Assembly (NCBI RefSeq): GCF_000296465.1
Contig: NZ_JH815205.1
Span: 62,001 to 126,000 of the forward strand
Length of the DNA: 64,000 nt
Source: Barnesiella intestinihominis YIT 11860
GTDB lineage: Bacteria > Bacteroidota > Bacteroidia > Bacteroidales > Barnesiellaceae
Direction of reading: 5' to 3'
The notes under the pieces are model-generated. The model made no database searches. It saw nothing but the letters and a program-made list of their open reading frames with translations, and had not been told where the DNA came from. Shown piece by piece: positions 41,151-56,790 of the stretch. The position numbers were made by a program, and so were the translations under genes. Numbering within the stretch: position 1 is the first letter of the stretch; each line of letters begins with the position of its first letter.

Positions 41151-41240
41151 CACCCTCCTCCCCTGCCGTGTCCCGTAGCATTGCGGGGTGTTTTGTACGC
41201 AAAATATAGGGGAGGTGGCACGTAGTGACGGAGGGGTTAA
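41151..41240 (+). repeat. Structured repeat family 1, copy A
   Basis: Full-length copy: CTCCCCTGCCGTGTCCCGTAG..., hairpin TTTTG-TAC-GCAAAA, AGGGGAG, tail hairpin CAC-GTA-GTG, then GGAGGGGTTAA. The surrounding gap 40786-41259 has no gene. Confidence 0.75.
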
Positions 41241-41259
41241 ACCATACAATGTTACCCAA

Positions 41260-43614
41260 CTATCTCTTCACACCCTTAACGACTGTGATTTCATGTTTCC
41301 CGACGACCCGAATAAAATACGTTCCCGGAGCCCACGCCGAAGCATCTACGGTCACAAGACGAGCTTGCGAATCGACATGCTGTCGATACACCTCCCGACC
41401 GCCTTCGTCCAGCACGGAAATACTTCGGGTATTCTCAGGAACACGTACAATAAATTCAGAGTTGAAAACAGACGGATAAATAGAAGCCTTCTCTTCCGTA
41501 ACTTTCTCTATTGAACTAACTCCGTTCACATTCTGAGTGACTTTGATGTCATAAGTCGAAATACTATCCGAGACCGTGAGCGTAGCGACACGTTCCTCAA
41601 TACCGTCCGGCAAACGGTCATAGGAAATTTGCAAGGTGTCCAATGTCAAGCCATTCGGCTTACCTACGACCCGACACCACTCGGCATCACTCCGAATAGG
41701 AGTTTCATAACCGTATATCGAATAGAACGGATATTTAACCGTACCGGCTGCCTTACCCACCACCAGCGGTTCACGGTCTACCGGCATAGGCGACATAACC
41801 GAATGAACGATCGAAGGCATAATCATATAAGAAGTATGATTCGCTCCTGCGGGGAAATAAGTGCTCACGTCTCGCCACTCTCCATCTTTCAACATATAAG
41901 CCGTGTTACCGTGGTCCCGGAAATCGGCCATAGCGAACGACACATCTACACTGTCGTTCTTCTCGGGAATACCGTCCACCACAATGAAAAACTCGTCGTC
42001 GATCACCGTCGGGTCAAATTCAAATTCCGTAGCGGTCAATGAACTGCCCGAAGGGGTTTCCAATTCGAATACCCTCCACCACATCGAGTCGAGTTTCTTG
42101 CCTGGCAATCCGTTCTCGCTGGTATACAGATGCACGCCCACATCGGCAATCTGGTCGGTTATACTCGCAGCCGAAGCACTCACAAAATAAACATAAGCTC
42201 CGAATACCAATATCGGACGGGACGGTTTGGAAAACTTCTCAGCATAAGCAGTAATATTCAATTTATTCGTCCCGGGGAAAGTTCCTCTATCTTCCAAATC
42301 GAACGTCGCAGCCCTATCTCCCGGCTCTAAATTCGTAATTAACCCACTGTACTCGACCGACACCTCTACGGTATCGTTCGATTCGCCATGTTCGTTCTCC
42401 ACACGCAGACTCACCCCTTGTTTATGCATATAACTATACCCTACGATAGGGTTTTCCTCGTGCGACGTCACCCGGGCATACGGTTCGGGATCGACACCGT
42501 CGAAAGTCCACTCCCACGAAGTAGGATAATTGGTCGAATTGTCCCGATACTGCACCCCCACCAGCGGAGCTACCATCGGCAAACGCGTTTCGCTGAACCG
42601 GAATGTAGCCGGTGGTAATATCTGCGCAAGCGGTGCGGATCCGGTAACCTTCACGAATCCCGTGCGGGTCTTCGTATCGCTCCCATCGGCATTACTTACC
42701 GTCAACGTCACATCGTAAACGCCGTCTCGCGTATAGAACACTCGGGGATTCTGGTCGGTCGATGTCGACGGCGTTCCGCCCGGGAACGACCATTGCCATG
42801 CCGTAGGCGAACCCGAGGACATATCGGCGAAAGCAATCACCTCGCCCGTGGCTGCCTCGACTTGTTCTACGGTCGATACTCCGGTAATTTTTAAACCGTC
42901 GATAGCGAAATCGCCCATATAACCACCGGTTCCGAACGAATCGTTTTTTCCGGGACCATACGTAAAACGAATCTGAATCTTCTGACCGGAATATTTCTCC
43001 AAAGAAACCGAAAACTCATGCCAACGCCACGGCTTCTCTCCGTCCTCGTCGACGCTATTCCAAAGAATTTCCGAAGTCTCAAAAGCATCTGCCGAAACAG
43101 AAATCTGCAAGCGACAGTAATCGTCCATATTTTGGGTAAACCCTATATATCCTTTCAACATAGCATTTGCAGGAACATCGATCTGCCCACTTGTCGCCAT
43201 AGCGATTCCTCGTTTGAAAGACTGATAAGGGCCCTCTATATACAACGATTGAACATCGTCTGGATCATAAGTAGAAAAATCTCTACTGGGGTCAGTCGTA
43301 CTCGTGATTTTTTTCACAGTCCACGAAAAATCCTCGGCATTGGTAAATGTCCAGCCATCTGTTCCGTCGTCAAAATCCTCTTCCCATACAGTTACAGCAC
43401 TGCCGGCACTCTGACAACTAAAATCGGCAGTCACACTCGCCGCAGCCGATTGAAACAAATTCGGTCCCTGTTTTTTCCCCACGAATTGAATACGGGGAGC
43501 TTCTTTCGTAGCGACCTTATCGTGAACTCTCTCGTTCATCGGCCGCTGAGCGCTCATCGGTATACTCACCCAAAGAGCAGCTGTTAAGATTAGGCTTGAA
43601 ATAAAACTTTTCAT
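41260..43614 (-). CDS. T9SS-secreted protein with PKD and jelly-roll domains
   Basis: 784 aa. Signal peptide MKSFISSLILTAALWVSIPMSAQ. A choice-of-anchor-J type domain (about 75-250, EEDFDDGTDGWTF) is followed by a PKD domain (about 265-330, FYTRDGVYDVTLTVSNADG), a second PKD-like domain (about 345-420) and a large beta-rich part. A type IX secretion sorting tail of about 75 residues (SIYPSVFNSEFIVRVPEN...GTYFIRVVGKH) ends the protein. Likely surface-attached. No catalytic motif is visible. Confidence 0.82.
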   Translation of the reverse strand: MKSFISSLILTAALWVSIPMSAQRPMNERVHDKVATKEAPRIQFVGKKQGPNLFQSAAASVTADFSCQSAGSAVTVWEEDFDDGTDGWTFTNAEDFSWTVKKITSTTDPSRDFSTYDPDDVQSLYIEGPYQSFKRGIAMATSGQIDVPANAMLKGYIGFTQNMDDYCRLQISVSADAFETSEILWNSVDEDGEKPWRWHEFSVSLEKYSGQKIQIRFTYGPGKNDSFGTGGYMGDFAIDGLKITGVSTVEQVEAATGEVIAFADMSSGSPTAWQWSFPGGTPSTSTDQNPRVFYTRDGVYDVTLTVSNADGSDTKTRTGFVKVTGSAPLAQILPPATFRFSETRLPMVAPLVGVQYRDNSTNYPTSWEWTFDGVDPEPYARVTSHEENPIVGYSYMHKQGVSLRVENEHGESNDTVEVSVEYSGLITNLEPGDRAATFDLEDRGTFPGTNKLNITAYAEKFSKPSRPILVFGAYVYFVSASAASITDQIADVGVHLYTSENGLPGKKLDSMWWRVFELETPSGSSLTATEFEFDPTVIDDEFFIVVDGIPEKNDSVDVSFAMADFRDHGNTAYMLKDGEWRDVSTYFPAGANHTSYMIMPSIVHSVMSPMPVDREPLVVGKAAGTVKYPFYSIYGYETPIRSDAEWCRVVGKPNGLTLDTLQISYDRLPDGIEERVATLTVSDSISTYDIKVTQNVNGVSSIEKVTEEKASIYPSVFNSEFIVRVPENTRSISVLDEGGREVYRQHVDSQARLVTVDASAWAPGTYFIRVVGKHEITVVKGVKR

Positions 43615-43628
43615 ACACTTCCTATTTA

Positions 43629-46493
43629 TTATTTGATAAATTTTATCTGTATCGTTTTCCCTTCTTCGGTCACGACATGAGCGATATAAAGTCCGGCCGG
43701 AAGTTGGGACAGATCCATTCGTCCGCTTTCCGATTCACAAGACACTACCGTTACCCCTGCCGCATTGATAATTTGAATATCGCCACCCTTGTCAAAAACT
43801 AACGAATGGTTACTACGATCGAAATAAACTTCATTCATACACTCCAAACCATCGATACCGGAAATGACATTACTGATAATCGAACATGAACTTATATACA
43901 ATCCCCACGGATCCCGGGTAGTAGCATGTAAACCGATATACCAGATCCCGTCTGACGGAACACTGAAATCTACTGTATAAAGTTCCGACAAAGTCGAATT
44001 GATTTCCGGGTACGAAGCGATCACCGTTTGGCTTTCACCGGGTAGAACATCACTGCCCAATGTCACTTCAATGGACTCAGGATAACGATATTTCTCTGCC
44101 CGGGCCCTAAATTCAAGCGTATACGAACCCTTCTTAGCTTCGAACGGCGGCGTAAACAACCAGTCGTCGGCAGCCGAATAGGCCGTATATTTCATCTCCT
44201 TCTCAGTAGCATCATATACCCAACTTTTCGTATCGTTATTGGCATCGACGATAGTCCATAAAGCCATCTCATCGGCGCTATCCATACTCGTCTCGTACGG
44301 AAGTCCCAATGCACTGCCGAATACCAACGCATTCGAGGTTACCGACTCGCTTTCCATATCGCCCGACAGCGTCGTTACCGTATAGCGATACAAAGCCAAA
44401 GAAAGGTCATCGCTATCGACATAAACCGTATCGGTCAAACTTTCCGTCAACATCTCGCTCCCGGGATCACGGACGATTCTGTATCTCAAATTCTCCACAT
44501 CGATATATCCGCCATTCACACCCTCTGCGGGAGCTCTAAAAGTAACTTGCGGTTTACCTTCCACATCGGTCAATTCCACATCAGTTACCGATTTCGGAGT
44601 ATCTGCACCTATCCAAGCCGATTCCACCACGGCGGCCTCACCGGCATTCTCCTCGACATAACCGATGACTCTATATTCATATTTGCCCGGAGCAGGCACA
44701 TCTTCATCGATCACCTGTTCCGAACCTCCTTTTATCGGATCTTCTTGTGTATAAATAAGAGTTTCGCCCCGATACAACTCCATTTTCGTCAACATCGGCA
44801 GTTGCGTACCGGCAGCCGAAAGAGAAGGATTGGTCCATGCAACCGTGGCAGACATAGCGCCCTGTTCACCGGGAGCAACGGTCAAATCGGAAACGACGGC
44901 CGGGACAACCACTGTTTCGTCCACCGACAGGTCATCGATGAATATAGCATACCAATTGGTCTGTCCGTAACAATGGAAACCTATATGGTATCCACCCGAC
45001 TCGGAAACAGAAAAGACAACCTCTTTCTCTTCCATCAAAGCAGACTGAATTGTATCCCGGAACAATCGGGTAGATTGAGCTTCCGCCGTGGCGGCCCGAC
45101 CAATCGTCACGCTCAAATCCTTATAACTTTCCTCAGAAGCCGCATTTTCAAGCCCAGTTTTGAAAAGTAGTTTATAATTCTTCCCGGCCACCAAATTCAA
45201 TTTAGGCGTAATAAGCCACTCATCGGCATCACTACCGCCCCAATACTGAACCATTTTTTTCGAGCTATCATATTTCCAAGTCGAATTATCCCCGTTGGCA
45301 CTCAGTATAGTAAACAAATCGAGCGATGATTCGGTATCGAAACTCTCGCTATACGGTAATTCTTTCGCTCCTCCGGCCACAACCTTATTGGAAGAAACCG
45401 ATACGCTCGCTTTACCATCGAACATTGCGACGACCGTATAAACATAACTGCCCAATTCCAGGACTTCATCGATATAAGGGAAGGGGCCCGAAAAACTTTT
45501 GGACAAGACACCACCCGGGGTACGGCCGATTTCATACGTAAGCGCCTCGGTATCGATATATCCACCGTTCTTTCCGACTGTCGGTGGCATAAACGAAAGG
45601 CTCACAGTCGCATCCTCTGCCGAAGCTACCAAATCGGTAACTGCCATAGGAGTATCATTCCCTATCCACGGGGAAGTAACGGTCGTTGCTGAGCCCTGAG
45701 AATCCCCGAACGTATTATAAGCGACCACTTTATATGTATAATTTCCGGCGGTCTCGATAGAAGAATCTATCCAACCAGCTTTTCCTCCCACAGTAGCCGT
45801 ATCGAGAGTAGCGACCAAATCTGTCCCCCGATATATTTTAGCGCCCAAGAGGTTCGAAAGCGCACCGCCCAAATGGTCGGACGAAGGCCATGTCCATGAA
45901 AGAGTCGCCGACATCGCTCCCCTCTCCCCCGCAACGATGGAAAGGTCTGTAATTTGTGCCGGATAAACGGGAGCCTCTTCGATAACGATCTTCTGGAAAT
46001 AGAGATCGCCATTATACGATTCGCTGTAACAACGCAATCCCACATAAAAAACACCGCTCTCCGCCGGTGAAAACGTCCCCGATTTTTCCACGAACAATCT
46101 ACTTTGAAAAGATTCGTCATAAACCAACCGGGTCGTCAGCCCTTCTACCGTAGGCGCCGTCCCTATTTTCAATTCTATTTTTTGTTTATCCGAACCAAAT
46201 GTAGAAGAATGCTTCACATAAGCCGACACCTTATAGGCTTTCCCGGCTTCGAGGGTCACCGCCGGAGCGATTAGCCAATCATCGGCGGCATTACTCTTAT
46301 CTTGCGTATACATCGCATTGCCATCGTTATAGGCCCACGTATTGGCACTTACGTCGCTATTGACATCGATCACTGTCCAATCACGAGCAAAAGTCTCGGC
46401 ATCGGTTATTTCCAACGTACAAGGAGGAACAGTCTGAGCCCACCCTACCGAAAAACAATAGAAAAGAAAAAGAACAGAAGTAATTTTTTTCAT
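43629..46493 (-). CDS. T9SS-secreted modular protein: three jelly-roll and four Fn3-like domains
   Basis: 954 aa. Signal peptide MKKITSVLFLFYCFSVGWAQ. Three repeats of a cleaved-adhesin/choice-of-anchor-J module (about 30-170, 375-520, 730-875; shared pattern W-Y-D...A-DDWLI-P) are separated by pairs of fibronectin type III-like domains (VSDLTVAPGEQGAMSATVAW and similar). A C-terminal sorting tail (about 880-954, QIINAAGVTVVSC...LPAGLYIAHV) follows. It is 14 nt upstream of the PKD gene, so they form an operon. Likely an adhesin or scaffold on the surface. Confidence 0.82.
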   Translation of the reverse strand: MKKITSVLFLFYCFSVGWAQTVPPCTLEITDAETFARDWTVIDVNSDVSANTWAYNDGNAMYTQDKSNAADDWLIAPAVTLEAGKAYKVSAYVKHSSTFGSDKQKIELKIGTAPTVEGLTTRLVYDESFQSRLFVEKSGTFSPAESGVFYVGLRCYSESYNGDLYFQKIVIEEAPVYPAQITDLSIVAGERGAMSATLSWTWPSSDHLGGALSNLLGAKIYRGTDLVATLDTATVGGKAGWIDSSIETAGNYTYKVVAYNTFGDSQGSATTVTSPWIGNDTPMAVTDLVASAEDATVSLSFMPPTVGKNGGYIDTEALTYEIGRTPGGVLSKSFSGPFPYIDEVLELGSYVYTVVAMFDGKASVSVSSNKVVAGGAKELPYSESFDTESSLDLFTILSANGDNSTWKYDSSKKMVQYWGGSDADEWLITPKLNLVAGKNYKLLFKTGLENAASEESYKDLSVTIGRAATAEAQSTRLFRDTIQSALMEEKEVVFSVSESGGYHIGFHCYGQTNWYAIFIDDLSVDETVVVPAVVSDLTVAPGEQGAMSATVAWTNPSLSAAGTQLPMLTKMELYRGETLIYTQEDPIKGGSEQVIDEDVPAPGKYEYRVIGYVEENAGEAAVVESAWIGADTPKSVTDVELTDVEGKPQVTFRAPAEGVNGGYIDVENLRYRIVRDPGSEMLTESLTDTVYVDSDDLSLALYRYTVTTLSGDMESESVTSNALVFGSALGLPYETSMDSADEMALWTIVDANNDTKSWVYDATEKEMKYTAYSAADDWLFTPPFEAKKGSYTLEFRARAEKYRYPESIEVTLGSDVLPGESQTVIASYPEINSTLSELYTVDFSVPSDGIWYIGLHATTRDPWGLYISSCSIISNVISGIDGLECMNEVYFDRSNHSLVFDKGGDIQIINAAGVTVVSCESESGRMDLSQLPAGLYIAHVVTEEGKTIQIKFIK

Positions 46494-46903
46494 AGCTATT
46501 CTATTTTAATTAATATGAAGAAAAAGCATCTTTTATTCAAAAACTATCGAAATGCCATCTCGAATGCAAAGTCTCTCTATTCTCCCACTCCTAAAAACAG
46601 ACAACCGAAAACAACGAAAATTGAGTTTTACATAGTCGAATTTAATCTTATCTATATGCAAATATAATATTATTATTTTACAATCTGCAATCATTCTTTG
46701 ATTATTTTTTTTAAAAAATATAACAATCATCTCCTTTTAAAAAAATATGACAACATTCATCGGCATTTTGCGACAAATGGGAAAAGCCCGATATTCGTAT
46801 AAATCGAGGGCGTAAGCAATCCGACAGGGAAAACAAATACATTTGTTCGATAAAGTCTCTTCCCTTTTTCCGTATCTTTGCCCCATAAAAAAAACGGCAT
46901 ATC
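46494..46903. promoter_or_regulatory. Divergent intergenic region with a -7 box for the rightward gene
   Basis: AT-rich 410 bp between divergent genes. TATCTTTG at 46873-46880 lies 23 nt before the ATG at 46904. No other site is recognised. Confidence 0.5.
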
Positions 46904-48073
46904 ATGAACCTCTATCTGTTCAATCCCGAAAATGACTTGGCCATAGCCTTCGGTGGAGAAAATTACACCCCTCCACCGGCAGCGCAACTCATCGGGAAAG
47001 AACTCTCCGCCCTTCCCCTTTGGTATGCCGACGACGACACCACGATATACATACCCGATAAATTACCGTCCGATTTTCTTCACACATTAGCCCCGCTCAA
47101 TTTAAAGATTTCTACGGTAACACCCGACCGGCTCGATGGAGCACAAGTAAAACAGATACATGTTTGGGGGTGGAACCGCGATTTGATAAAACGTTTGAGA
47201 TTAGCGGGAATCGATAAAACCCTATTACCGTCCGCACGACAATGCGATACCATTCGGGAACTATCCCACCGAAAATTTTCCGCCGAAATCGGGAAATACC
47301 TTCGTAACCGCATCGATTACCCTTTTCCCGAACTTCCGGTAGAACTACACACAGCCGACGAGATTCGATCCTTCACAGAACAATCCGATCGTAAAATCCT
47401 GAAAGCCCCGTGGTCGGGTAGCGGGCGCGGACTCTATTGGAATCTTTACGGATATGACACGGCATTGGCTCAATGGAGCAACGGAGTATTGCAGAAACAA
47501 GGTATGCTTATGGGCGAACCGGTCTATGACAAAATCAGCGACTGGGCTATGGAGTTTCACAGCGACGGATTCGAAGTAAAATTCGCTGGATATTCCTCGT
47601 TCCTCACCGACCGTCACGGAGCATATAAAGAAAACCGGTTGGCAAGCGATGCCGTTTTAGAACTCGAACTGACCTATGCCGTCGGCTTCGAAATCATTAC
47701 TGCCGTCAAAGAATCGCTTATCGACTTTTTCACCGAACGCATAGCCCCGTACTACACCGGATATTTCGGGGTAGATATGATGACCTATCGCGACAAACGA
47801 GGAAACACACTCTTGCACCCGTTCGTCGAACTCAATCTACGCATGAATATGGGTATGGTCGCACGCAAACTCGCCGACCGCTTTTTGCCGCCGGAGACGG
47901 AAGGGCGATACCGTGTAGACTATTATCCCAAACCGGGAGAACTCCACAACGACCACGTCGCCCGACTAAAAACAAATCCACCCCGCATAACCGACGGGAA
48001 GCTCCTGCGCGGATACCTCGCACTCACTCCGGTTTCCCCCCACAGCCGATACAGGGCAAGTATAGAAATCTAA
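46904..48073 (+). CDS. Conserved protein, ATP-grasp-like
   Basis: 389 aa. The start MNLYLFNPENDLAIAFGGEN is conserved in uncharacterised Bacteroidota proteins. The segments ILKAPWSGSGRGL (about 165-177) and HPFVELNLRMNMGMVA (about 305-320) recall the nucleotide-binding and metal-binding stretches of ATP-grasp ligases. No signal peptide, so cytoplasmic. It has its own promoter and stands alone. The reaction and substrate are unknown. Confidence 0.6.
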   Translation: MNLYLFNPENDLAIAFGGENYTPPPAAQLIGKELSALPLWYADDDTTIYIPDKLPSDFLHTLAPLNLKISTVTPDRLDGAQVKQIHVWGWNRDLIKRLRLAGIDKTLLPSARQCDTIRELSHRKFSAEIGKYLRNRIDYPFPELPVELHTADEIRSFTEQSDRKILKAPWSGSGRGLYWNLYGYDTALAQWSNGVLQKQGMLMGEPVYDKISDWAMEFHSDGFEVKFAGYSSFLTDRHGAYKENRLASDAVLELELTYAVGFEIITAVKESLIDFFTERIAPYYTGYFGVDMMTYRDKRGNTLLHPFVELNLRMNMGMVARKLADRFLPPETEGRYRVDYYPKPGELHNDHVARLKTNPPRITDGKLLRGYLALTPVSPHSRYRASIEI

Positions 48074-48239
48074 ATCCCCATATGTCCCTCTGCGTCAAAA
48101 TGAACTACTGTAATTAAAATAAGAGAAGGAAAACACACTTTAAATAAAACCGGTTGAATATACTGCCCACATAAGCCATCTAAAAAAATAAACGAGCTGC
48201 AAATTCAAAAACATATACGATTGAAATATAATATTTTCC

Positions 48240-48300
48240 ACCCCCTCCGGCTTTCGGACACCTCCCCTATGTTTTGCAATGCAAAACATAGGGGAGGTGT
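48240..48300 (-). repeat. Structured repeat family 1, copy B (perfect hairpin)
   Basis: Copy in minus orientation. Its core is a perfect 20-bp stem (48258-48277 with 48281-48300, inner part CCCCTATGTTTTGC) with loop AAT. The tail TCCG-AAAGC-CGGA hairpin is followed by GGGGG. Confidence 0.75.
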
Positions 48301-48342
48301 GCACAATGTATCCTTATACCGAAACTGAAACGCCACTTCCAA

Positions 48343-48403
48343 TCCTCTCCCCCTGTGTCTCCGTTAGGGAATATAGGGGGAGTGCCCGCAGGGCGAGGGG
48401 GTT
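48343..48403 (+). repeat. Structured repeat family 1, copy C (short)
   Basis: CTCTCCCCCTGTG..., a small TCC-GTTA-GGGA hairpin, AGGGGGAG, then tail hairpin GCCC-GCA-GGGC and GAGGGGGTT. It lacks the first internal hairpin. Confidence 0.7.
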
Positions 48404-48450
48404 GAAACGACGGAAAGGTTAAAAAAACAGCAACAATCGGGTATCATACT

Positions 48451-48534
48451 CTCCCCCTGCCGTGTCCCGTAGCCTTACAGGGTGTTTTGTCGTACAAAAT
48501 ATAGGGGAGGTGGCACGTAGTGACGGAGGGGTTA
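48451..48534 (+). repeat. Structured repeat family 1, copy D
   Basis: Full-length copy: CTCCCCCTGCCGTGTCCCGTAG..., hairpin TTTTGT-CGT-ACAAAA, AGGGGAGG, tail hairpin CAC-GTA-GTG, GGAGGGGTTAG. Three copies lie within 300 bp in the gene-free stretch 48074-48942. Confidence 0.75.
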
Positions 48535-48607
48535 GAAAATAGTTAGGAGTATTTATTACCGTTGTAAAATAAAGGGGCTATCAAACAATATGAAATAATG
48601 AATAGGC

Positions 48608-48680
48608 AAAAAAAAAATTGATTGTCTCACGACAACCAATCTTTGTTAACCTTAATCTTAATCTAATACTATGAAAAACA
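48608..48680 (-). ncRNA. Candidate small RNA (about 75 nt) on the minus strand
   Basis: A -7 box TACATTTG (48693-48686, minus) is followed 70 nt later by a hairpin ATTGGTTGTC-GTGA-GACAATCAAT (48640-48617, one mismatch in the stem) and a run of about ten T, a strong intrinsic terminator. There is no open frame of note between them and no minus-strand gene nearby. The sequence between is AT-rich (AGATTAAGATTAAGG). I infer a short stand-alone transcript; a correctly spaced -33 TTTG is not evident. Confidence 0.5.
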
Positions 48681-48905
48681 CATTGCAAATGTATGAATTT
48701 TCTGTTATACAACATAATTTTCAAACACAATTCTAACACATTTAACATTATTTCAAATATAAATATACTTGTACTTTATTGGATCGTCATTTTTTTCAAA
48801 TTATTTTTCAATCCGATTCTCCATTGTAAAAGCAAATCGATGCGCTTTATTTTTCTCGTTCTTTGTACAACACCAAAAGTCAGAATTCCGACATAAACAA
48901 ATAAA

Positions 48906-48937
48906 TTTGCTTCGACCCTCGGCTTACATTATCTTTG
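48906..48937 (+). promoter_or_regulatory. Promoter of the DEAD-box helicase gene (near-leaderless)
   Basis: TTTG (48906-48909), a 20-nt spacer and TATCTTTG (48930-48937) form a near-ideal Bacteroidota promoter. The chosen ATG is only 5 nt further on, so transcription should begin at or very near the start codon. Confidence 0.7.
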
Positions 48938-48942
48938 CAGAC

Positions 48943-50280
48943 ATGAAAGAAACATCGGCCCTTATCGACAAAGCGTGTCGCAACTTGAATATCGACTCAC
49001 TGAACGGCATGCAGAAGCAAATGCTCGAAACGGCTACACGGCCAAACGACATTATACTGCTCTCACCCACAGGCTCGGGAAAAACATTAGCATTCCTTCT
49101 GCCCGTACTGTCTCGAATCTCCCCCAAAATTGCCGGAGTGCAAGCGCTCGTCATCGTTCCCTCCCGCGAGCTCGCTTTACAAATCGACAACGTATTGCGT
49201 AAAATCGCCGCAGGTATAAAAATAGTTTGCTGTTACGGCGGCCACTCCGTACGGGAAGAAAGTAAATCGCTCGCCGTAGCTCCCGCTCTTATCGTGGGAA
49301 CTCCCGGAAGAATCGCCGACCATATACGCCGGGGACGAATCGTACTCGAAACGCTCGATACCCTCGTCCTCGATGAATTCGACAAATGCCTCGCCTTAGG
49401 CTTTCAGGACGAAATGCAAGAAATCATCGCTCCCTTGAAAAACGTAAAGAAAAAGATTCTCACCTCGGCAACCGACAGTGAATCTCTACCGGCCTTCACT
49501 GATTTGAAAAAACCGGTAAAGCTCAATTTCCTCGGTTCACGGAAAGACAACGAGACTACGCCGACCGACAGACTATCGCTCTACCGAATCGACTCGCCGA
49601 TAAAAGACAAATTGGAAACGCTGCTTGCCCTATTACACAACCTCAAACCGGGACTCACCCTCATCTTTTGCAACCAACGTGAAAGCGTAGACCGTGTACG
49701 GCAGTTCCTCACCGACCGGGGCATTATCGCCGAAGCCTTCCACGGCGGCATGGAACAAGCCGACCGAGAGAGGGCGCTTTGCAAATTCCGCAACCACAGC
49801 AGTTACATCTGTATCTCTACCGATCTGGCCGCACGGGGGCTCGACATTCCCGAAGTCAAATACATCGTACATTACCACCTGCCCGTCGACTTCGAAAGTT
49901 TCACGCACCGCAACGGACGTACCGCCCGCATGCATGCCGAAGGAGAAGCATTTATCATTCTCGGCCCCACAGAACAAATGCCCGAATACGCAACCGAGGC
50001 GACCGACTTCCGAATCGACCCGAAAGCCAACTTCCTGCAAACTCCGCCAATGGCCACATTCCATTTCGCAGCCGGGAAAAAAGAAAAAATAAGCAAAGGA
50101 GACATCGTGGGATTCCTCACTCAGAAAGGAAAGCTCGCAGCCGACGAGATAGGGCTCATCGAGATTAAAGACCATTACAGCTATGTCGCTGTAACTCGCG
50201 ACAAAGCGCACGAAACACTCGCCCGCCTCAAAAACGAAAAGATAAAAAGGAAAAAAGTAAAGATTTCTTTCGGGTACTGA
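48943..50280 (+). CDS. DEAD-box RNA helicase (DEFD variant)
   Basis: 445 aa from the ATG at 48943; this start keeps the Q-motif region (NIDSLNGMQKQML). Motif I SPTGSGKT (41-48), Ia PSRELALQ, motif II VLDEFDKC with DEFD in place of DEAD (144-147), motif III SAT, then the second RecA domain with FCNQRESVDRVRQF, DLAARGLDIP and HRNGRTAR. The C-terminal about 70 residues resemble the RNA-binding DbpA-type domain (KGDIVGFLTQKGKL). Probably acts in ribosome assembly or RNA remodelling. Convergent with the pseudouridine synthase gene. Confidence 0.92.
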   Translation: MKETSALIDKACRNLNIDSLNGMQKQMLETATRPNDIILLSPTGSGKTLAFLLPVLSRISPKIAGVQALVIVPSRELALQIDNVLRKIAAGIKIVCCYGGHSVREESKSLAVAPALIVGTPGRIADHIRRGRIVLETLDTLVLDEFDKCLALGFQDEMQEIIAPLKNVKKKILTSATDSESLPAFTDLKKPVKLNFLGSRKDNETTPTDRLSLYRIDSPIKDKLETLLALLHNLKPGLTLIFCNQRESVDRVRQFLTDRGIIAEAFHGGMEQADRERALCKFRNHSSYICISTDLAARGLDIPEVKYIVHYHLPVDFESFTHRNGRTARMHAEGEAFIILGPTEQMPEYATEATDFRIDPKANFLQTPPMATFHFAAGKKEKISKGDIVGFLTQKGKLAADEIGLIEIKDHYSYVAVTRDKAHETLARLKNEKIKRKKVKISFGY

Positions 50281-50290
50281 AAAGCACGTT

Positions 50291-50974
50291 CTATTTTCCT
50301 TCCACCATTTTTTCGAATGCCTGCCACAAATTATCGGACGGGACAGGAGCCGTCACGCTCACAAGCTCCTTCGAAACCGGGTGGACAAACTCGATATGAC
50401 GGGCATGTAACGAAATCCCCCCATCGGGATTGGAACGCTCCGCTCCGTACTTCAAATCCCCCTTGATAGGCGAGCCTATCTTGGCAAGCTGACAGCGGAT
50501 CTGATGATGCCGGCCTGTTTTCAAATCCACTTCCAACAAGGTATAACGATCGCCCCGAGCCAAAATCTTATAATCCAATACAGCACGTTTCGCACCCGGT
50601 TTCTCCCGGTCGTACGCTACCGACTTGTTACTCTTCTCGTTTCTGACCAAATAATGTACGAGTTCGTCGCTCTCCTTTTCAGGAGCTCGTTTCACGATAG
50701 CCCAATAACTTTTCTTTACCTCGCCGTTACGAAACATATCGTTCAATCTCGCCAGTGCCTTGCTCGTCTTGGCAAACACTACCAACCCACTCACCGGACG
50801 GTCGAGCCGATGAGTTACTCCCACAAAGACATTACCCGGCTTATTATATTTCTCTTTCAACCACGCCTTCAACATCTCGCTCAACGGAGTATCTCCCGTC
50901 TTATCGCCTTGCACGATCTCAGAGCAATTCTTATTGACAATAATCAGATGATTGTCTTCGTAAAGGACTTCCAT
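50291..50974 (-). CDS. RluA-family pseudouridine synthase
   Basis: 227 aa. The catalytic signature GVTHRLDRPVSGLVVFAKT has Asp58. VDLKTGRHHQIRCQLAKIG and LHARHIEFVHPV are the usual later motifs. No S4 domain, as in the shorter RluA/RluC-type members. It converts uridine to pseudouridine in rRNA or tRNA; the exact target is unknown. Confidence 0.9.
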   Translation of the reverse strand: MEVLYEDNHLIIVNKNCSEIVQGDKTGDTPLSEMLKAWLKEKYNKPGNVFVGVTHRLDRPVSGLVVFAKTSKALARLNDMFRNGEVKKSYWAIVKRAPEKESDELVHYLVRNEKSNKSVAYDREKPGAKRAVLDYKILARGDRYTLLEVDLKTGRHHQIRCQLAKIGSPIKGDLKYGAERSNPDGGISLHARHIEFVHPVSKELVSVTAPVPSDNLWQAFEKMVEGK

Positions 50975-51300
50975 AATCTACACAAATTTCAATCTTGTGC
51001 AAAAATAGCACAAACCGAGCGCAGAAACAAATGTGCTTGGATATATCAAGACCCCGCCTATTTTTTCGCAAGCCTTGCAAAATAGCGCAAGCCCAAAAAA
51101 GACAAAACGAACTTTTCGTTTTTCCTATCGAATCGTAGCTTACCTTACCTTCACTTCTCTTGCCCCGACCGAGCCCCCTATTAAAATATATAGAAAAACT
51201 TATAACCAAAGACTGGACGATAAAAAAAATTTATTTTTGCACAGTTTTTTTGCAACCGAATGTAGAGAAATTACGTCTCTATTAGAAAACGACACATACA
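50975..51300. promoter_or_regulatory. Divergent promoter region
   Basis: 326 bp between divergent genes. A -7 box TATTTTTG on the minus strand (51007-51000) lies within TTGTGC-TATTTTT-GCACAA, so the box itself is in a palindrome. Another TATTTTTG (51232-51239, plus) precedes the outer-membrane protein gene. No gene is seen. Confidence 0.5.
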
Positions 51301-53454
51301 ATGATAAAAAAAGTACTCCTCCTTGCAGGTATATTAGCGGTCTTTTCCACGACAAAAGCGCATCCCGCAACCGACAACGATACGATAGAAGTAGTTTATG
51401 CCGACACAACGGGAATCGACATCGACTCCATAGAAGCCTCGATAGATCACATAGAACTCGACGAAGTAACCGTAGAAGCCTCCGCTTGGGTACGTAAAGC
51501 CGATCGCAATCTGCTTTTCCCCAATGCCCAACAGATAAAACAATCGAAAAACGGATTGCAATTACTGCAAAAACTGCAAATACCGGGTATCGTCATCAAC
51601 CCCACCGACAATAGTATATCGTTGACCGATAAAAGCGAATTAAGCCTGCGTATCAACGGACGTCCGGTCACGGAAAAAGAAATACAAGGCATTTCTCCCG
51701 AGCAAATCATACGGGTAGAATACATCGATAATCCGGGAATACGTTATGGCGAGGCAGGAGCCGTACTCGACTTCATCATTAAAACGCCCACTTCGGGTGG
51801 TAGTTTCATGGGGAATTTTACACCTTCGCTAAACCGAGGGTGGGGACAATATTGGACTTCGGTCAAAGTCAACACCGGCAAATCAGAATTCTCCTATTCC
51901 GGGTGGTTCGCACCACGCTGGAATCTGGAAATGGGTCGTAGCAATACAGAAAGATACGAACTTGCCGATGGTTCCCGGTATGTCCGCACCGAGCAAAGCC
52001 AAAAAGGAAGCGGGTTCGAGGCTTGGCACAACGGACACACACTGAACTACAACTTCCTCGACCCTCAAAAACAAATGTTCAATGCCTCGCTCAATTTCAA
52101 TAATAACAATTATAAAAACAAATACAAAGGCATTTTGACCGACGAGCGTCCCGGAGGAATCGAAAACAACATGTACGACCGCACGGAATACATATCTTTA
52201 CATCCTTCGCTCAACCTCTACTACCAAAATAATTTGAAAAAAGACCAACTCATCATGGCAAATCTCGTGACCAGCTATGAAACATCGCACAGTCACAGAC
52301 TTTACAATGAAAACGATTTAGCCACGGACGCCCCTATGGTAAACATCGATAACCTCATCAAAGGGAAAACATTCTCGGTACTCGGCGAAGTCGATTACGA
52401 AAAAACTTGGAAAAACAGCCGGCTTACCGCCGGAATACGGCACACGCAGTCATGGATACAAAACAAGTATGTCGAACAAAATACCATCGATCGCATGAAT
52501 CAAGGCAACAGCTATATTTTCGGCGAATACTGGTTACGCCTCGGGAACCATTTCGATGGGTCGGTCGGACTCGGATACAGCCTCTATCACTATGCGCCAC
52601 AAAACAGGCAGTCCCACACCTACTCCATTTGGCGTCCCCGGTTCACGGCCCGATATACCATCGACGACTATTCCTCCCTACGATTCAACTTTGTCCGCAT
52701 GGGCAGCGTAATCACCCTCGACATGCTCAGCCCGGTCGTTCAAGACATAGACGGGATTCAACAATCGACCGGTAACCCCGATGTAAAACCCTATGCTACC
52801 TATAAATACGAACTGCAATACCAATACAACCGAGGAATATTTTACGGAAAACTCGGCGCATTCTATACCCATGCTCCCGGTGCGATCATGCCCGAAAAAT
52901 ACTGGGTCGGGGACAAAATACTCAGCCGGGTAGACAATCAAAAGAATGCCGAAGAATTACGATTCTACCTCAACACACGCATCAATGTCATTCCCGGCTG
53001 GCTCACCCTCAGTGCTGCCCCGGGTTGGCATAGATACTGGATGCGAGGAAATACCTACACACATACCTACAACAATTTTTTCATCGATGCCAGTATCGAT
53101 ATTTCCCATTGGGGATTTACGCTCAACGGCATACTCCAAACCAATTTCAATCGATTTTGGGGAGAAACCCTCACAGGAGGTGAAAATGTACACGGAATTA
53201 AACTATCCTATGCCTACAAAGACTGGAACTTCGGGATCATGGTTCTCGATCCCTTCATCAACAATTACAAAGTAAAATCCGAAAACTGGAACCGCTATGC
53301 GGGATATTACAGAGAAACGACAACCAATATGATTAAACAACTCCTAACTCTCGACATAAGTTGGAATATCAATTGGGGACGGAAACACGAAGCCGGACAA
53401 CAACGAATCAACAACTCGATCAACAGCGGCTCGGTAAACGCCGCCGGGAAATAA
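51301..53454 (+). CDS. TonB-dependent-receptor-like outer-membrane beta-barrel protein
   Basis: 717 aa. Signal peptide MIKKVLLLAGILAVFSTTKA. A plug-like domain (about 55-165: KLQIPGIVINPTDNSISLTD, LRINGRPVTEKEIQGISPEQI, RVEYIDNPGIRYGE) is followed by a barrel of alternating strands. The N-terminal carboxypeptidase-like extension usual in SusC-type proteins is absent, and no SusD partner lies next to it. It fits the outer membrane beta-barrel family of TonB-receptor relatives. Ligand unknown. Transcribed alone, ending at the hairpin at 53467. Confidence 0.8.
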   Translation: MIKKVLLLAGILAVFSTTKAHPATDNDTIEVVYADTTGIDIDSIEASIDHIELDEVTVEASAWVRKADRNLLFPNAQQIKQSKNGLQLLQKLQIPGIVINPTDNSISLTDKSELSLRINGRPVTEKEIQGISPEQIIRVEYIDNPGIRYGEAGAVLDFIIKTPTSGGSFMGNFTPSLNRGWGQYWTSVKVNTGKSEFSYSGWFAPRWNLEMGRSNTERYELADGSRYVRTEQSQKGSGFEAWHNGHTLNYNFLDPQKQMFNASLNFNNNNYKNKYKGILTDERPGGIENNMYDRTEYISLHPSLNLYYQNNLKKDQLIMANLVTSYETSHSHRLYNENDLATDAPMVNIDNLIKGKTFSVLGEVDYEKTWKNSRLTAGIRHTQSWIQNKYVEQNTIDRMNQGNSYIFGEYWLRLGNHFDGSVGLGYSLYHYAPQNRQSHTYSIWRPRFTARYTIDDYSSLRFNFVRMGSVITLDMLSPVVQDIDGIQQSTGNPDVKPYATYKYELQYQYNRGIFYGKLGAFYTHAPGAIMPEKYWVGDKILSRVDNQKNAEELRFYLNTRINVIPGWLTLSAAPGWHRYWMRGNTYTHTYNNFFIDASIDISHWGFTLNGILQTNFNRFWGETLTGGENVHGIKLSYAYKDWNFGIMVLDPFINNYKVKSENWNRYAGYYRETTTNMIKQLLTLDISWNINWGRKHEAGQQRINNSINSGSVNAAGK

Positions 53455-53466
53455 ATATAGGAACAA

Positions 53467-53501
53467 TACAGGGGCTATATCATTCAGATATAGCCCCTGT
53501 A
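53467..53501. terminator. Bidirectional terminator
   Basis: A perfect 15-bp stem TACAGGGGCTATATC and its complement with loop ATTCA, between convergent genes. Confidence 0.8.
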
Positions 53502-53529
53502 CTATATATATCTTGTCGTGCAGACCCGA

Positions 53530-54276
53530 TTACATATTCATACCGCCGCAGCAGTGGATAACCTGTCCCGTTACATACGACGACAAATCCGAGGCAAGGA
53601 AAGTAGCTACATTAGCCACATCTTCGGGCGTACCGCCTCGACGCAAAGGAATTTGTTTAGCCCATTCGGCTTTCACTTCGTCCGAAAGAGCCGCTGTCAT
53701 ATCGGTAATGATAAAACCCGGAGCGATAGCATTGGCACGCACGCCGCGAGAGCCCAGCTCTTTGGCGATGGACTTCGCCAAACCTATCATACCGGCTTTC
53801 GAAGCCGAGTAATTACACTGTCCGGCATTACCCGATACACCGACGACCGAAGCCATATTTATAATACTCCCGCATTTCTGTTTCATCATAATAGGAGTTA
53901 CGGCATGGATAAAATTAAATGCCGATTTCAAGTTCACGGTAAGAACCATATCCCATTGCTGCTCCGTCATGCGCATCATCAAACCGTCACGAGTGATACC
54001 TGCGTTATTCACCAAAACATCGATACGGCCGAAATCCTTTACAATTTCTTCCACCACCTTGTGAGCCTCTTCGAAATTAGCTGCGTTCGAAGCATACCCT
54101 TTGGCTCTCACGCCAAAAGCGGCAATCTCTTTTTCGGTAGCTTTACCGTTCTCGTCGATAACAAGATCCGTAAATGCGATATCAGCTCCTTCCGAAGCGA
54201 ATTTCAGGGCGATAGCCTTTCCTATGCCCCGTGCTGCGCCGGTAATCACAGCGACTTTTCCTTCAAGTAATTTCAT
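53530..54276 (-). CDS. fabG: 3-oxoacyl-[acyl-carrier-protein] reductase
   Basis: 248 aa from the ATG at 54276. Cofactor motif TGAARGIGKAIA, NNAG at about 90-93, catalytic Ser143, Tyr156 and Lys160 (CNYSASKAG). C-terminal end VIHCCGGMNM. Reduces 3-oxoacyl-ACP in fatty-acid elongation. Downstream of a TetR regulator gene (59-nt gap), which may control it. Confidence 0.93.
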   Translation of the reverse strand: MKLLEGKVAVITGAARGIGKAIALKFASEGADIAFTDLVIDENGKATEKEIAAFGVRAKGYASNAANFEEAHKVVEEIVKDFGRIDVLVNNAGITRDGLMMRMTEQQWDMVLTVNLKSAFNFIHAVTPIMMKQKCGSIINMASVVGVSGNAGQCNYSASKAGMIGLAKSIAKELGSRGVRANAIAPGFIITDMTAALSDEVKAEWAKQIPLRRGGTPEDVANVATFLASDLSSYVTGQVIHCCGGMNM

Positions 54277-54335
54277 AACTCTTTTTTTCATAATACAGGG
54301 ACAAGACATGCGCCTCGTCCCTTTGGTTCATATTT

Positions 54336-54914
54336 CTATCGTTTTATTCCGTATAAAATAAAATCCAATATATAATCCTTCAATCTCGATCGGTCTATTC
54401 CCGATTCCGAAAAATTATTGCGGATATAAGGGACGTCCAGCCCCCGAAGCGCATAATGAAGCACCGAAGCGGTAGCCGTCACATTAGGAATATGAAATAC
54501 ACCTTGCTCCACGCCCTCGCTCAATATGCTCCGCAACAAGGCCACTTCTCGCAAGTCTATACTCCTCCGGGCCTTCTCCACTTTCCAAATATCCCTGAAA
54601 AACTCCGCTCGCAATGTCCCGTTACGCACGACAGCTTCTTTCACAGCCTCCAAACGGATATTGATATAGTTGAGCAACTTCTCTTCGGGAGGCAAATCCC
54701 GGTTTGTAAGCCCCTCCAACCGAGCGTATAAATGCTTCGATTCGGCTTCCACGACGGCCCAATAAATCTCATTCTTATTCTTGAAATAGGTATAAATCGT
54801 ACGGCGACCCTTTCCCGACGCCTCGGCTATATCGTTCATCGTCGTAGCGGCCACACCCTGACGGGCAAACAACTGACGGGCAACATCGATAAGCAATTCT
54901 CGTGTACGAACCAT
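54336..54914 (-). CDS. TetR/AcrR-family transcriptional regulator
   Basis: 192 aa. N-terminal helix-turn-helix LFARQGVAATTMNDIAEASGKGRRTIYTYFKNKNE (about 16-50). The C-terminal ligand domain is helical and unassigned. Upstream of fabG in the same direction, so it may sense acyl chains, but no evidence for the ligand is visible. Confidence 0.9.
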   Translation of the reverse strand: MVRTRELLIDVARQLFARQGVAATTMNDIAEASGKGRRTIYTYFKNKNEIYWAVVEAESKHLYARLEGLTNRDLPPEEKLLNYINIRLEAVKEAVVRNGTLRAEFFRDIWKVEKARRSIDLREVALLRSILSEGVEQGVFHIPNVTATASVLHYALRGLDVPYIRNNFSESGIDRSRLKDYILDFILYGIKR

Positions 54915-54932
54915 AATCCTAATTCATCTATC

Positions 54933-54946
54933 TGCACATCTGTACA
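54933..54946. promoter_or_regulatory. Candidate TetR-regulator operator
   Basis: TGCACATCTGTACA, an inverted repeat with one mismatch, 19 nt upstream of the regulator's start. Typical place for autoregulation. Confidence 0.4.
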
Positions 54947-55110
54947 AAACTTGTGCGAAATTACACATTTTTATCATGAAATACCAAAGTATGCACCCCG
55001 TTTTTCCTTCATACCACGGTATTTACATTTTTAACAATAAAATAATTTTCTGTCATTCAATAACTTAAATAAACTCCAAGAACAAACTATATATATTTCT
55101 CTTCAAAATA

Positions 55111-55141
55111 TTTGCTATTTAAAAAATTATCCATACCTTTG
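55111..55141 (+). promoter_or_regulatory. tRNA-fMet promoter
   Basis: TTTG (55111-55114), exactly 19 nt, then TACCTTTG (55134-55141), 13 nt before the tRNA. A textbook Bacteroidota promoter. Confidence 0.8.
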
Positions 55142-55154
55142 CACTCACAAACAT

Positions 55155-55226
<72 letters not shown>

Positions 55227-55232
55227 CTACAC

Positions 55233-55255
55233 AAGGACTGTATATTACAGTCCTT
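55233..55255 (+). terminator. tRNA-fMet terminator
   Basis: AAGGACTGTA-TAT-TACAGTCCTT followed by TTTTTATTTT. Confidence 0.85.
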
Positions 55256-55347
55256 TTTTATTTTCCCCCTTTCAAATCTAACACCTCGTCGAGTTCAATA
55301 ATAAGAATATTATACCCCTCCTTTGCTTAGACTGCAAAAGAACCGCT

Positions 55348-55431
55348 TTAACCTCTCCCCTGCCCCATAGCATTGCGGGGTGTTTCCATAAGGGAATATA
55401 GGGGAGGTGTCCGCAAGGACGGAGGGGTTAA
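55348..55431 (+). repeat. Structured repeat family 1, copy E
   Basis: Full-length: TTAACCTCTCCCCTGCC, hairpin CCCC...GGGG, hairpin TTTCC-ATA-AGGGAA, AGGGGAGG, tail hairpin GTCC-GCAA-GGAC, GGAGGGGTTAA. The two ends (TTAACCTCTCC and GGAGGGGTTAA) are complementary. Confidence 0.75.
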
Positions 55432-55458
55432 TAAAAAAAGTACATGGATAACTAAGAC

Positions 55459-55510
55459 AGCCCTTCCGGGTTCATTCTTCTCGCTGTTGAGAAAAATAAA
55501 CGAATAAAAG
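55459..55510 (+). repeat. Repeat family 2, copy 1
   Basis: AGCCCTTCCGGGTTCATTC followed by TTCTCGCTGTTGAGAA, a hairpin TTCTC-GCTGTT-GAGAA. It follows family-1 copy E by 27 nt. Confidence 0.6.
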
Positions 55511-55572
55511 TATAATCATGCCATAATTCCACTATCCCCCTATCCTACCTTCGCAAAAAAATCAAACGAGCG

Positions 55573-56202
55573 ATGATAGATACAAGATTCGAAACAACCA
55601 TAGACCTGAGAGGTGAAATCGAGAACTACCGACAAGTAGCGCTCATCAAATACTACAAGATTCTCCTCGAACTCGACCCCCGTCGGGACAGACTGACCAT
55701 GCTCGCCGTCATTCGTTGTATCGACAAGCTCGAAAGACATTCCCAAGAACGAAAACGACCCCGAAACGACAAGAAGAAAATGCTGGCCGAAGGAACTCTC
55801 GCTTGGCACTACCAGAAACGCAACCAACTCTTCCGAAAAGCCGGACTATACGACATCGAGTCCACCCAGTTCCTCGTCGACCACGAAGAAATCTTCGACA
55901 CACACGAGGAACGGGAAGAGCGCGAACGTTTCGAAGCCTGCCGTCGGGAAGCTCTCAGAAGGAAAACCGAAACGCACGAGGCCGAAGAAAAAGAATCCGT
56001 GCAACCGGCCTCCGCTCACGAAGCCGATAAGGACCTGCAAGAAGACTACACGACAGCCGGGTCCGAAATCTCCGCGCACACCCCGCAGCCCTTATCGCCC
56101 CTATCCGGGAGCATCTGGTGCGGCACTCCTGCCGGTAATCCCATTGGAGAACCTGCACCCGGATTCCATCGATCCTCCTTCGATTGCAACAGAAGAGAAT
56201 AA
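55573..56202 (+). CDS. Highly charged hypothetical protein
   Basis: 209 aa. I do not recognise a family. Residues 1-110 are basic and helical (IENYRQVALIKYYKILLELD, ERKRPRNDKKKMLAEGTLAW). About 110-155 is a Glu/Arg-rich helix likely to form a coiled coil (HEEREERERFEACRREALRR). The last 55 residues are Pro/Ser/Gly-rich and probably disordered. A possible -7 box TACCTTCG is at 55546-55553. No signal peptide. It sits alone between two clusters of intergenic repeats. Confidence 0.6.
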   Translation: MIDTRFETTIDLRGEIENYRQVALIKYYKILLELDPRRDRLTMLAVIRCIDKLERHSQERKRPRNDKKKMLAEGTLAWHYQKRNQLFRKAGLYDIESTQFLVDHEEIFDTHEEREERERFEACRREALRRKTETHEAEEKESVQPASAHEADKDLQEDYTTAGSEISAHTPQPLSPLSGSIWCGTPAGNPIGEPAPGFHRSSFDCNRRE

Positions 56203-56318
56203 ATCCGACAGGTGGAGGGTGAACCTAATCCCCTCTTTTTCCCTCTCGATTTCGATGAGCAGAAACTGGAAGTCTCCCTTCTCCCCTACCATACCTCATA
56301 ACATAACGAGCCATTTTC

Positions 56319-56355
56319 TCGTCTCCTCTGTGTTTTGCTAATGCAAAATATGGAG
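56319..56355 (+). repeat. Structured repeat family 1, degenerate copy G
   Basis: TCTCCTCTGTGTTTTGC-TAAT-GCAAAATATGGAG: only the TTTTGC/GCAAAA hairpin and its flanks remain. Confidence 0.5.
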
Positions 56356-56551
56356 CGAAACGTCATGTCGTATCAACAAAAAGATTCAAGACCGTCAAAA
56401 GCACGAATTAAATCCCCGCCTTTATCGGGCGGTGAAGTCGCAAGGAAGACGGAGGAAAAAGGGCGAGGACTGTCCGAGCGGAGCGAGTTCCGCAGACCCC
56501 GACGGCGACCATAGCGACGAACCCAAAAGCCCGATAACAGCGGCGGCGCTT

Positions 56552-56598
56552 CTTGGTTCGTTCTTCTCGCTGTTGAGAAGAATGAACAAATAAAGCGA
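56552..56598 (+). repeat. Repeat family 2, copy 2
   Basis: GGTTCGTTCTTCTC-GCTGTT-GAGAAGAATGAAC: an almost perfect 13-bp hairpin. Confidence 0.6.
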
Positions 56599-56647
56599 AT
56601 TAATGTAACAAGGACTTTCTTTGACTGGGAAAGAAAATCATTAGTAT

Positions 56648-56711
56648 TCAACCTTCTCCCCTTGCCGTGCCCCGTATGCGGGGGTATCGCACTGCAATGA
56701 GCGGAGGGTTA
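56648..56711 (+). repeat. Structured repeat family 1, copy F1 (short)
   Basis: TCTCCCCTTGCCGTGCCCCG-TATG-CGGGG, then GCGGAGGGTTA. It keeps the first internal hairpin and loses the others. Confidence 0.6.
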
Positions 56712-56716
56712 CTCTC

Positions 56717-56782
56717 AATCTCCTCCTCTGTGTTTTGCACCGCAAAATATAGGGGAGGTGTCCGCAAGGACGAAGGGGTTAA
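56717..56782 (+). repeat. Structured repeat family 1, copy F2
   Basis: CTCCTCTGTGTTTTGC-ACC-GCAAAATATAGGGGAGG, tail hairpin GTCC-GCAA-GGAC, then GAAGGGGTTAA. It lacks the first internal hairpin. Confidence 0.7.
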
Positions 56783-56790
56783 TAAAAACA

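What the first reader, a model, noticed from the sequence alone, without database searches (positions are those of the whole stretch)
41151..56782. Family of 60-90 nt multi-hairpin intergenic repeats with compensatory base changes
Eight copies (A 41151, B 48240 inverted, C 48343, D 48451, E 55348, G 56319, F1 56648, F2 56717) share CTCCCC...AGGGGAGG and end in GGAGGGGTTAA. Pairing is kept while bases change: TTTTGC/GCAAAA, TTTTGT/ACAAAA or TTCC/GGAA in one hairpin; GTCC-GCAA-GGAC, GCCC-GCA-GGGC, CAC-GTA-GTG or TCCG-AAAGC-CGGA in the tail hairpin; CCCCG/CGGGG or CCCC/GGGG in the first. Covariation argues for selection on folded RNA or DNA. Full copies and copies missing single hairpins coexist, so it is modular. 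All are chromosomal; none occurs in the 36.9 kb of ICE. Possible roles: REP-like sites, transcript-end stabilisers, or non-autonomous mobile units.
Basis: seen in the sequence. Interest (0 to 1): 0.75.

Follow-up and report, generated by a model that had tools for sequence, protein, structure and literature searches.

The report
Hairpin repeats linked to DUF559 nuclease
These short folded repeats look like the multiplying ends of a tiny selfish DNA unit built around a small DNA-cutting enzyme (DUF559); similar repeats occur in many bacterial phyla, so the link would give a large class of bacterial repeats a likely driving enzyme.

Summary
The repeats are real. Six of the eight listed copies match a covariance model in full and two are fragments; the genome holds at least 150. 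Covariation exceeds shuffles (59 double-change cells against 18.8). Copy number is patchy within the genus: at least 128 in one sister, 42 and 3 in two, none in five. They are not RAYT-driven REPs: the sister with at least 128 copies has no RAYT match. That sister's DUF559 (Vsr-like endonuclease) gene has a copy 83 bp on one side and an inverted copy 4 bp on the other. Across phyla, similar elements lie within 300 bp of 15 of 29 DUF559 loci and 0 of 29 control loci. In genomes not chosen for repeats, 11 of 15 small DUF559 genes have inverted flanks. In one genus, one coding site is empty or holds a solo element, an inverted pair or a full DUF559 cassette. Best reading: non-autonomous hairpin DNA of DUF559 cassettes. 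Association and presence/absence at one site are shown; cutting and copying are inferred. The window's genome has no DUF559 match, so its copies look orphaned.

The parts
41152..41240 (+). copy A, long type I element
   Evidence: R1 51.5 bits, E 8.9e-12
48238..48302 (-). copy B, inverted short element, nearly palindromic
   Evidence: R1 59.7 bits, E 4.3e-14
48342..48405 (+). copy C, short type II element
   Evidence: R1 62.9 bits, E 5.5e-15; used to build the model
48446..48535 (+). copy D, long type I element
   Evidence: R1 42.2 bits, E 3.7e-9
55349..55431 (+). copy E, long element with TTCC/GGAA-type apical hairpin
   Evidence: R1 44 bits, E 1.2e-9
56326..56355 (+). copy G, fragment: apical hairpin only
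   Evidence: R1 18.6 bits, E 0.017, model positions 10-38
56648..56714 (+). F1, degenerate 5' module
   Evidence: read in the sequence; only a weak minus-strand match over 56648-56761, E 0.0012
56717..56782 (+). copy F2, short type I element
   Evidence: R1 82.4 bits, E 1.9e-20; used to build the model
55573..56202 (+). 209-aa ORF of unknown family inside the repeat cluster, multi-copy in the genome
   Evidence: 97-98% identical copies in L011/L066 and L030/L063, 64% copy in L027/L061, each beside repeats; no Pfam or NCBIfam match at E <= 1

Best explanation
The repeats are non-autonomous mobile DNA elements: G-rich hairpins ending in a purine tail. They are the same kind of sequence that flanks, often as an inverted pair, small cassettes carrying a DUF559 gene (Vsr-like endonuclease). 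Shown: the window's own element family flanks a DUF559 gene in a sister Barnesiella; elements of the same plan flank DUF559 genes across phyla; at one coding site of another genus, empty, solo, paired and full states occur. Inferred: the enzyme recognises the folded single strand, perhaps at conserved G.T wobble pairs, nicks it or a target, and repair or replication copies the element to a new place. In the window's genome no DUF559 gene is found, so its 150 or more copies are probably orphans of earlier spread.
For: DUF559 gene of G002 between an R1 copy and an inverted copy, then three tandem 213-bp units. Structural scanner: element within 300 bp of 15 of 29 DUF559 loci, on both sides in 11, against 0 of 29 GIY-YIG loci of the same genomes. 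Family-free inverted flanks: 22 of 28 DUF559 loci against 16 of 288 cross-locus pairs; 11 of 15 small DUF559 genes in an unselected Bacteroidota sample against 4 of 158 pairs. One helicase site: 8 full cassettes, 3 of about 100 bp, 19 short or empty, of 30 loci; a DUF559 domain in exactly those 8. Patchiness in the genus. Structural difference of about 290 bp at one element site between the window's genome and a 97-99% identical contig. Invariant G.U pair in 44 of 44 copies and neutral orientation to genes favour DNA-level recognition of one strand.
Against: No DUF559 match in the window's own genome or in G004 with 42 copies, so the gene is not needed for persistence. The scanner missed 14 of 29 DUF559 loci, the Barnesiella one (L337) among them. 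GIY-YIG control loci also show inverted flanks in 8 of 29 and direct ones in 13 of 29, as many direct as DUF559 with 13 of 28. DUF559 in large frames shows inverted flanks in 5 of 13, not significantly fewer than small genes (p 0.12). No target-site duplication was fixed and no new insertion was seen. Flank families follow the DUF559 tree only loosely (22 changes against 26.9 shuffled). Nothing here tests cutting.
Confidence: 0.65

Rival explanations
1. The repeats are targets, not ends: a homing-type DUF559 nuclease cuts pre-existing hairpin repeats and its gene is copied into them, while the repeats spread by other means.
For: The DUF559 profile matches a homing endonuclease structure, 3r3p 'mobile intron protein', E 2.8e-6. 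Solo elements exist at the helicase site where others have the gene (L420, L431). Many copies exist in genomes without the gene.
Against: The flanks are usually an inverted pair (8 of the 11 two-sided loci have a plus copy left and a minus copy right), and gene plus flanks lie together inside a coding sequence whose relatives are empty. No other candidate driver of the repeats was found here.
Confidence: 0.2
2. RNA elements: transcript-end stabilisers, terminators or regulators, kept by selection on the folded RNA.
For: Covariation and an invariant G.U pair; 79 of 83 classified copies lie outside ORFs of 150 aa or more.
Against: Orientation is about neutral: sense to both neighbours 16, antisense to both 23, convergent 25, divergent 15, against gaps of 47 co-directional, 23 convergent and 19 divergent (simple ORF caller). 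No Rfam family at gathering score; over 48230-48545 only sub-threshold microRNA matches. Folding of window copies is only modestly better than shuffles, z -0.6 to -2.3, and similar on the other strand.
Confidence: 0.08
3. REP/BIME elements driven by a RAYT, or a MITE of an ordinary insertion sequence.
For: One RAYT match in the window's genome, E 7.1e-15; clustered copies in both orientations, as in BIMEs.
Against: No copy within 1.5 kb of that gene; 1 of 9 genomes of the genus has a RAYT match and it is not G002 with at least 128 copies. Other transposase families were not searched.
Confidence: 0.05

Closest known systems
GTAG REP / REPIN / BIME elements with RAYT (PMC3733652: abstract, outline and passages)
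   Same: Short palindromic, mostly intergenic, high copy number, clusters in both orientations, patchy between related genomes, gene-less copies with a gene-bearing form.
   Different: The enzyme is a Vsr-like PD-(D/E)XK-type nuclease instead of a tyrosine HUH transposase; the unit has two or three hairpins and a purine tail, with no terminal GTAG tag in the sense of that paper.
CGTC REPs (same paper)
   Same: Widespread REP class which that paper says apparently lacks a dedicated transposase.
   Different: Stems of 8-9 bp with CGTC at one end and tails fitting CCA; the sequences here differ. CGTC-like repeats are seen in sister Barnesiella species instead.
EDxHD / Vsr-like homing endonucleases (PMC9403480 and PMC3943268: passages)
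   Same: A DUF559 gene has been assigned to the EDxHD homing family (PMC9403480); the profile of 16 DUF559 proteins matches 3r3p 'mobile intron protein', which I recall to be I-Bth0305I.
   Different: Those genes are described in introns and inteins or as phage genes; here the gene sits between hairpin repeats, and the repeats alone reach high copy number.
Caulobacter VsrA, CCNA_02930 (PMC12907096: summary and passages)
   Same: DUF559 domain, Vsr-like; reported as responsible for an SOS response in cells lacking a cytosine methyltransferase, with T:G mismatch repair proposed.
   Different: The passages I saw do not link it to repeats; I did not test the flanks of that gene.
CIR elements of Caulobacter (PMC2229807: passages)
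   Same: Intergenic alpha-proteobacterial repeats of about 110 bp with two inverted-repeat arms.
   Different: Defined by a GANTC site. I could not read the original paper and did not compare sequences.

Membership tests
REP/RAYT system (GTAG REPs) | RAYT gene in the genome flanked by the repeats | tested here: not met
   Own RAYT locus L009 has no copy; 1 of 9 genus genomes has a RAYT match, not G002
REP/RAYT system (GTAG REPs) | high-copy intergenic palindromes in clusters and both orientations | tested here: met
REP/RAYT system (GTAG REPs) | single stem-loop of 20-40 bp with unpaired GTAG at one end | tested here: not met
   65-90 nt units with two or three hairpins and a GGAGGGGTT-type end
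CGTC REPs | terminal CGTC and 8-9 bp stem, CCA-like tail | tested here: not met
   copies read by eye against the description in PMC3733652
Rfam RNA family | match above the gathering score | tested here: not met
   window gives only RF04319 and a tRNA, neither at an element
Mobile element bounded by a DUF559 gene | same repeat family on both sides of the gene | tested here: met
   G002: L337:1324-1390+ and 1877-1938- around the ORF at 1474-1872
Mobile element bounded by a DUF559 gene | occupied and empty versions of one site | tested here: met
   helicase site in 30 loci of one genus; that site carries a related repeat family, not the Barnesiella letters
Mobile element bounded by a DUF559 gene | DUF559 gene in the window's own genome | tested here: not met
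Mobile element bounded by a DUF559 gene | enzyme acts on the repeat | not testable with these tools
   needs biochemistry
Homing endonuclease, Vsr/EDxHD-like fold | homology to characterised members | tested here: met
   3r3p E 2.8e-6 and 3hrl E 3.7e-35 with the profile of 16 proteins; fold prediction not available

The most novel reading that the evidence does not exclude
DUF559/Vsr-like nucleases are the dedicated enzymes of a cross-phylum superfamily of RAYT-independent hairpin repeats. The conserved G.T wobble pairs in the folded strand imitate the T:G mismatch that Vsr enzymes cut, so each element marks itself for nicking and is copied as single-stranded DNA with a replication-strand preference.
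Probability: 0.3. Interest if true: 0.92.

Novelty: new variant of a known kind. Interest (0 to 1): 0.8.

Why it matters
Many bacterial palindromic repeats have no known driving enzyme; PMC3733652 says so for CGTC REPs (abstract and passages). A DUF559 link gives a testable candidate for one wide class, offers an explanation for low-complexity inserts in proteins such as LeuRS and MetH, and suggests a role for a domain that Pfam lists as unknown. Literature seen: 'DUF559' gives 14 papers (listing) and 'DUF559' with 'repeat' gives 9 (listing); no title or abstract start makes this link, and passages of two of them (PMC12907096, PMC9403480) do not. That library lacks most subscription papers and bioRxiv, so prior description elsewhere is possible.

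Tried and rejected
RAYT linkage rejected. Rfam identity rejected. DUF559 in the own genome sought by family and by protein: none. G003 has only a weak partial DUF559 match inside a 422-aa open frame (E 2.2e-4), not recovered by the protein search. General transcript-end function disfavoured. GIY-YIG proved an unclean control in the family-free test (8 of 29 inverted, 13 of 29 direct), so cross-locus pairs were used as well. Calling 'large-frame' DUF559 an internal negative control failed: 5 of 13 have inverted flanks, and the seven frames given to Pfam are host proteins with DUF559 in or beside known domains. No exact target-site duplication could be fixed. GC skew against element orientation: rho -0.40, p 0.010 over 40 stretches; Fisher p 0.025 on 36; exploratory, uncorrected, and tandem arrays weigh on it. 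Flank family on a quick DUF559 tree of 57 domains: 22 changes against 26.9 shuffled, as low in 1 of 200; weak. The 5' arms of cross-phylum copies did not align well, so no second covariance model was built. R-scape was not available.

Full report
What is there. The window lies in a 3.44-Mb genome of 5 contigs. The species, B. intestinihominis, is my recollection from genome size and contig number, not a tool result. Six of the eight reported copies match covariance model R1 in full; G and F1 are fragments. From 39 fetched stretches, loci L001-L009 and the window I collected 118 end matches and parsed 90 of them, 85 distinct; 28 were not parsed.

Architecture. Type I copies have outer CCTCC/GGAGG and inner TCCCCT/AGGGGA arms, an apical hairpin, then a tail hairpin before CGGAGGGGTT. 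Type II copies shift the boundary by one base on both strands (CCTC/GAGG, TCCCCCT/AGGGGGA). Apical hairpins are swapped whole: TTTTGC..GCAAAA, TTCC..GGAA, GCGCAC..GTGCG, GCTCATC..GATGAG. On 44 short copies chosen for diversity (63 distinct ones were at most 69 nt; those of 60-69 nt were eligible), 90.1% of pair cells are standard (shuffled 83.6), 12 of 25 pairs change on both sides (shuffled 8.0), and 59 cells have double changes, against 18.8 in shuffles and at most 25 in slid controls. I drew the structure from these sequences, which favours it over slid versions, and the copies are related, so this is strong but not formal proof. One pair is G.U in 44 of 44 copies, a second in 38 of 44. Such a wobble is G.T in folded single-stranded DNA; the other strand would have A.C. 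So one strand is the recognised one. Folding energies of three window copies are only modestly better than shuffles.

Copy number and spread. At least 150 copies in the own genome (150 of 1492 candidates scored). Of 41 genomes searched with stricter filters, 6 have matches: own and G002 (128 each, the scoring limit), G004 42, G003 3 and, outside the genus, G012 2 and G017 1; five genomes of the genus have 0. In 20-kb regions around the orthologous DEAD-box helicase gene of seven sister genomes, R1 matches (E <= 1) occur only in G002. At the E-F2 cluster, DNA homology to G001, G003 and G008 stops near window 55227 and resumes near 56869. Within the species: contig L161, 97-99% identical to the own genome around C3:214.8-220.3 kb, has one long element where the own genome has about 290 bp more, comprising a 5' half, a further element and a short element. 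Which state is older cannot be told.

Link to DUF559. The tail pattern, searched without its 5' arm, hit 86 stretches of the viral collection and at least 119 genome stretches in many phyla. Of these 205, 151 also carry the C-rich 5' arm; a few of the rest look like coding sequence by eye. Of 41 genomes (33 chosen for the pattern and 8 of the genus), 28 have DUF559. In G002 the only DUF559 match sits between an R1 copy (83 bp away) and an inverted copy (4 bp from the stop), followed by three tandem units of 213 bp. A scanner that fixes structure but not letters found elements within 300 bp of 15 of 29 DUF559 loci (11 on both sides, 8 of these with a plus copy left and a minus copy right) and of 0 of 29 GIY-YIG loci from the same genomes; 35 against 3 elements in 91 and 92 kb, Fisher p 5e-6 (one duplicate dropped in each set; the scanner missed L337). 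By eye, of 12 loci without a scanner hit most show flanks of the same plan in other letters. A letter-free test agrees: inverted flank match in 22 of 28 DUF559 loci (one duplicate and one short locus dropped), 8 of 29 GIY-YIG loci and 16 of 288 cross-locus pairs; direct matches do not differ, 13 of 28 and 13 of 29. In a Bacteroidota sample not chosen for repeats, 137 of 247 genomes have DUF559. Of the 30 fetched loci, small genes have inverted flanks in 11 of 15 (two short loci dropped), DUF559 in frames over 300 aa in 5 of 13, cross-locus pairs in 4 of 158. The DUF559 gene of G017, 43% identical, also has direct and inverted flank matches.

Insertion evidence. Seven large frames were given to Pfam. 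DUF559 lies inside the UvrD_C span of a helicase (L410), before the LeuRS editing domain (L384), between the two B12-binding domains of MetH (L407), between HsdR domains (L388), beside Type ISP specificity segments (L382), and after a DNA methylase (L383) and a GATase domain (L395). Only for L410 did I compare relatives. The host part matches 139 of 150 genomes of its genus (genus unnamed in the data, Flavobacterium is my guess). In the 30 best loci, two fixed host points lie 454-622 bp apart in 8 (reference included), 101-109 bp in 3 and 31-58 bp in 19. A DUF559 domain at E <= 1e-6, without stops, is in those 8 and no other. L437 and L439 are inverted element pairs without a gene; L423 looks decayed; L420 and L431 look like single elements; most other short ones look empty. 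This series ties solo repeats, inverted pairs and gene cassettes into one system. It may reflect decay of an old insertion as well as new ones.

Enzyme. The Barnesiella protein is DUF559 at E 9.8e-27. In 16 aligned proteins R18, T22, E25, W29, F42, R44, Q45, D54, F55, E65, G68, H71, D80, R83 and R96 are invariant. The profile matches PDB 3hrl (E 3.7e-35) and 3r3p 'mobile intron protein' (E 2.8e-6). PMC12907096 reports that Caulobacter VsrA, with a DUF559 domain, is responsible for an SOS response in cells lacking a cytosine methyltransferase and proposes T:G mismatch cutting (summary and passages).

How it may work (inferred). In single-stranded DNA the element folds; the nuclease recognises the hairpin and cuts it or a target; copying or template switching places the element, alone or with the gene, at a new site. 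Gene-less copies spread in trans and persist after gene loss, as in the window's genome. A G.T wobble inside the tail hairpin is also seen in the unrelated flank family of L316, L319, L321 and L343 (read by eye), which is why I keep the mismatch idea open. Neutral orientation to genes fits DNA-level selection; a weak link of orientation with GC skew would fit a strand preference.

Noticed in passing
window 55573-56202 +: 209-aa ORF with no Pfam or NCBIfam match, present in 97-98% identical copies at two other repeat clusters of the genome and a 64% copy at a third; the homologous DNA reaches from about 55395 to 56510 in one pair.
   Followed up: partly
window 48608-48681 -: Rfam FopS paralogous sRNA (RF04319) just beyond copy D, 70.1 bits; the DNA there is conserved in sister species, in contrast to the repeats.
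   Followed up: no
orthologues of window 55230-56868 in G001 and G008; dbpA upstream region of G003: Other repeats of CGTC-REP look (..GTCATTCCGCA..TGCGGAATCCAG) lie in intergenic places where the window's genome has the present elements.
   Followed up: no
GIY-YIG loci L345-L374: 8 of 29 control GIY-YIG loci have inverted flanking matches and two have a CGTC-REP-like repeat near (L352, L362). GIY-YIG genes may have repeats of their own.
   Followed up: no
   Followed up: no
L003 (C1:604.8-605.2 kb) and L337:1940-2540: Element plus spacer is repeated in tandem with periods of about 174 bp (own genome) and 213 bp (G002), pointing to local amplification.
   Followed up: no
tail of the elements, e.g. 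window 41218-41230: The core GGAGGTG equals the complement of the 16S rRNA 3' end (recalled, no call); whether this matters was not tested.
   Followed up: no
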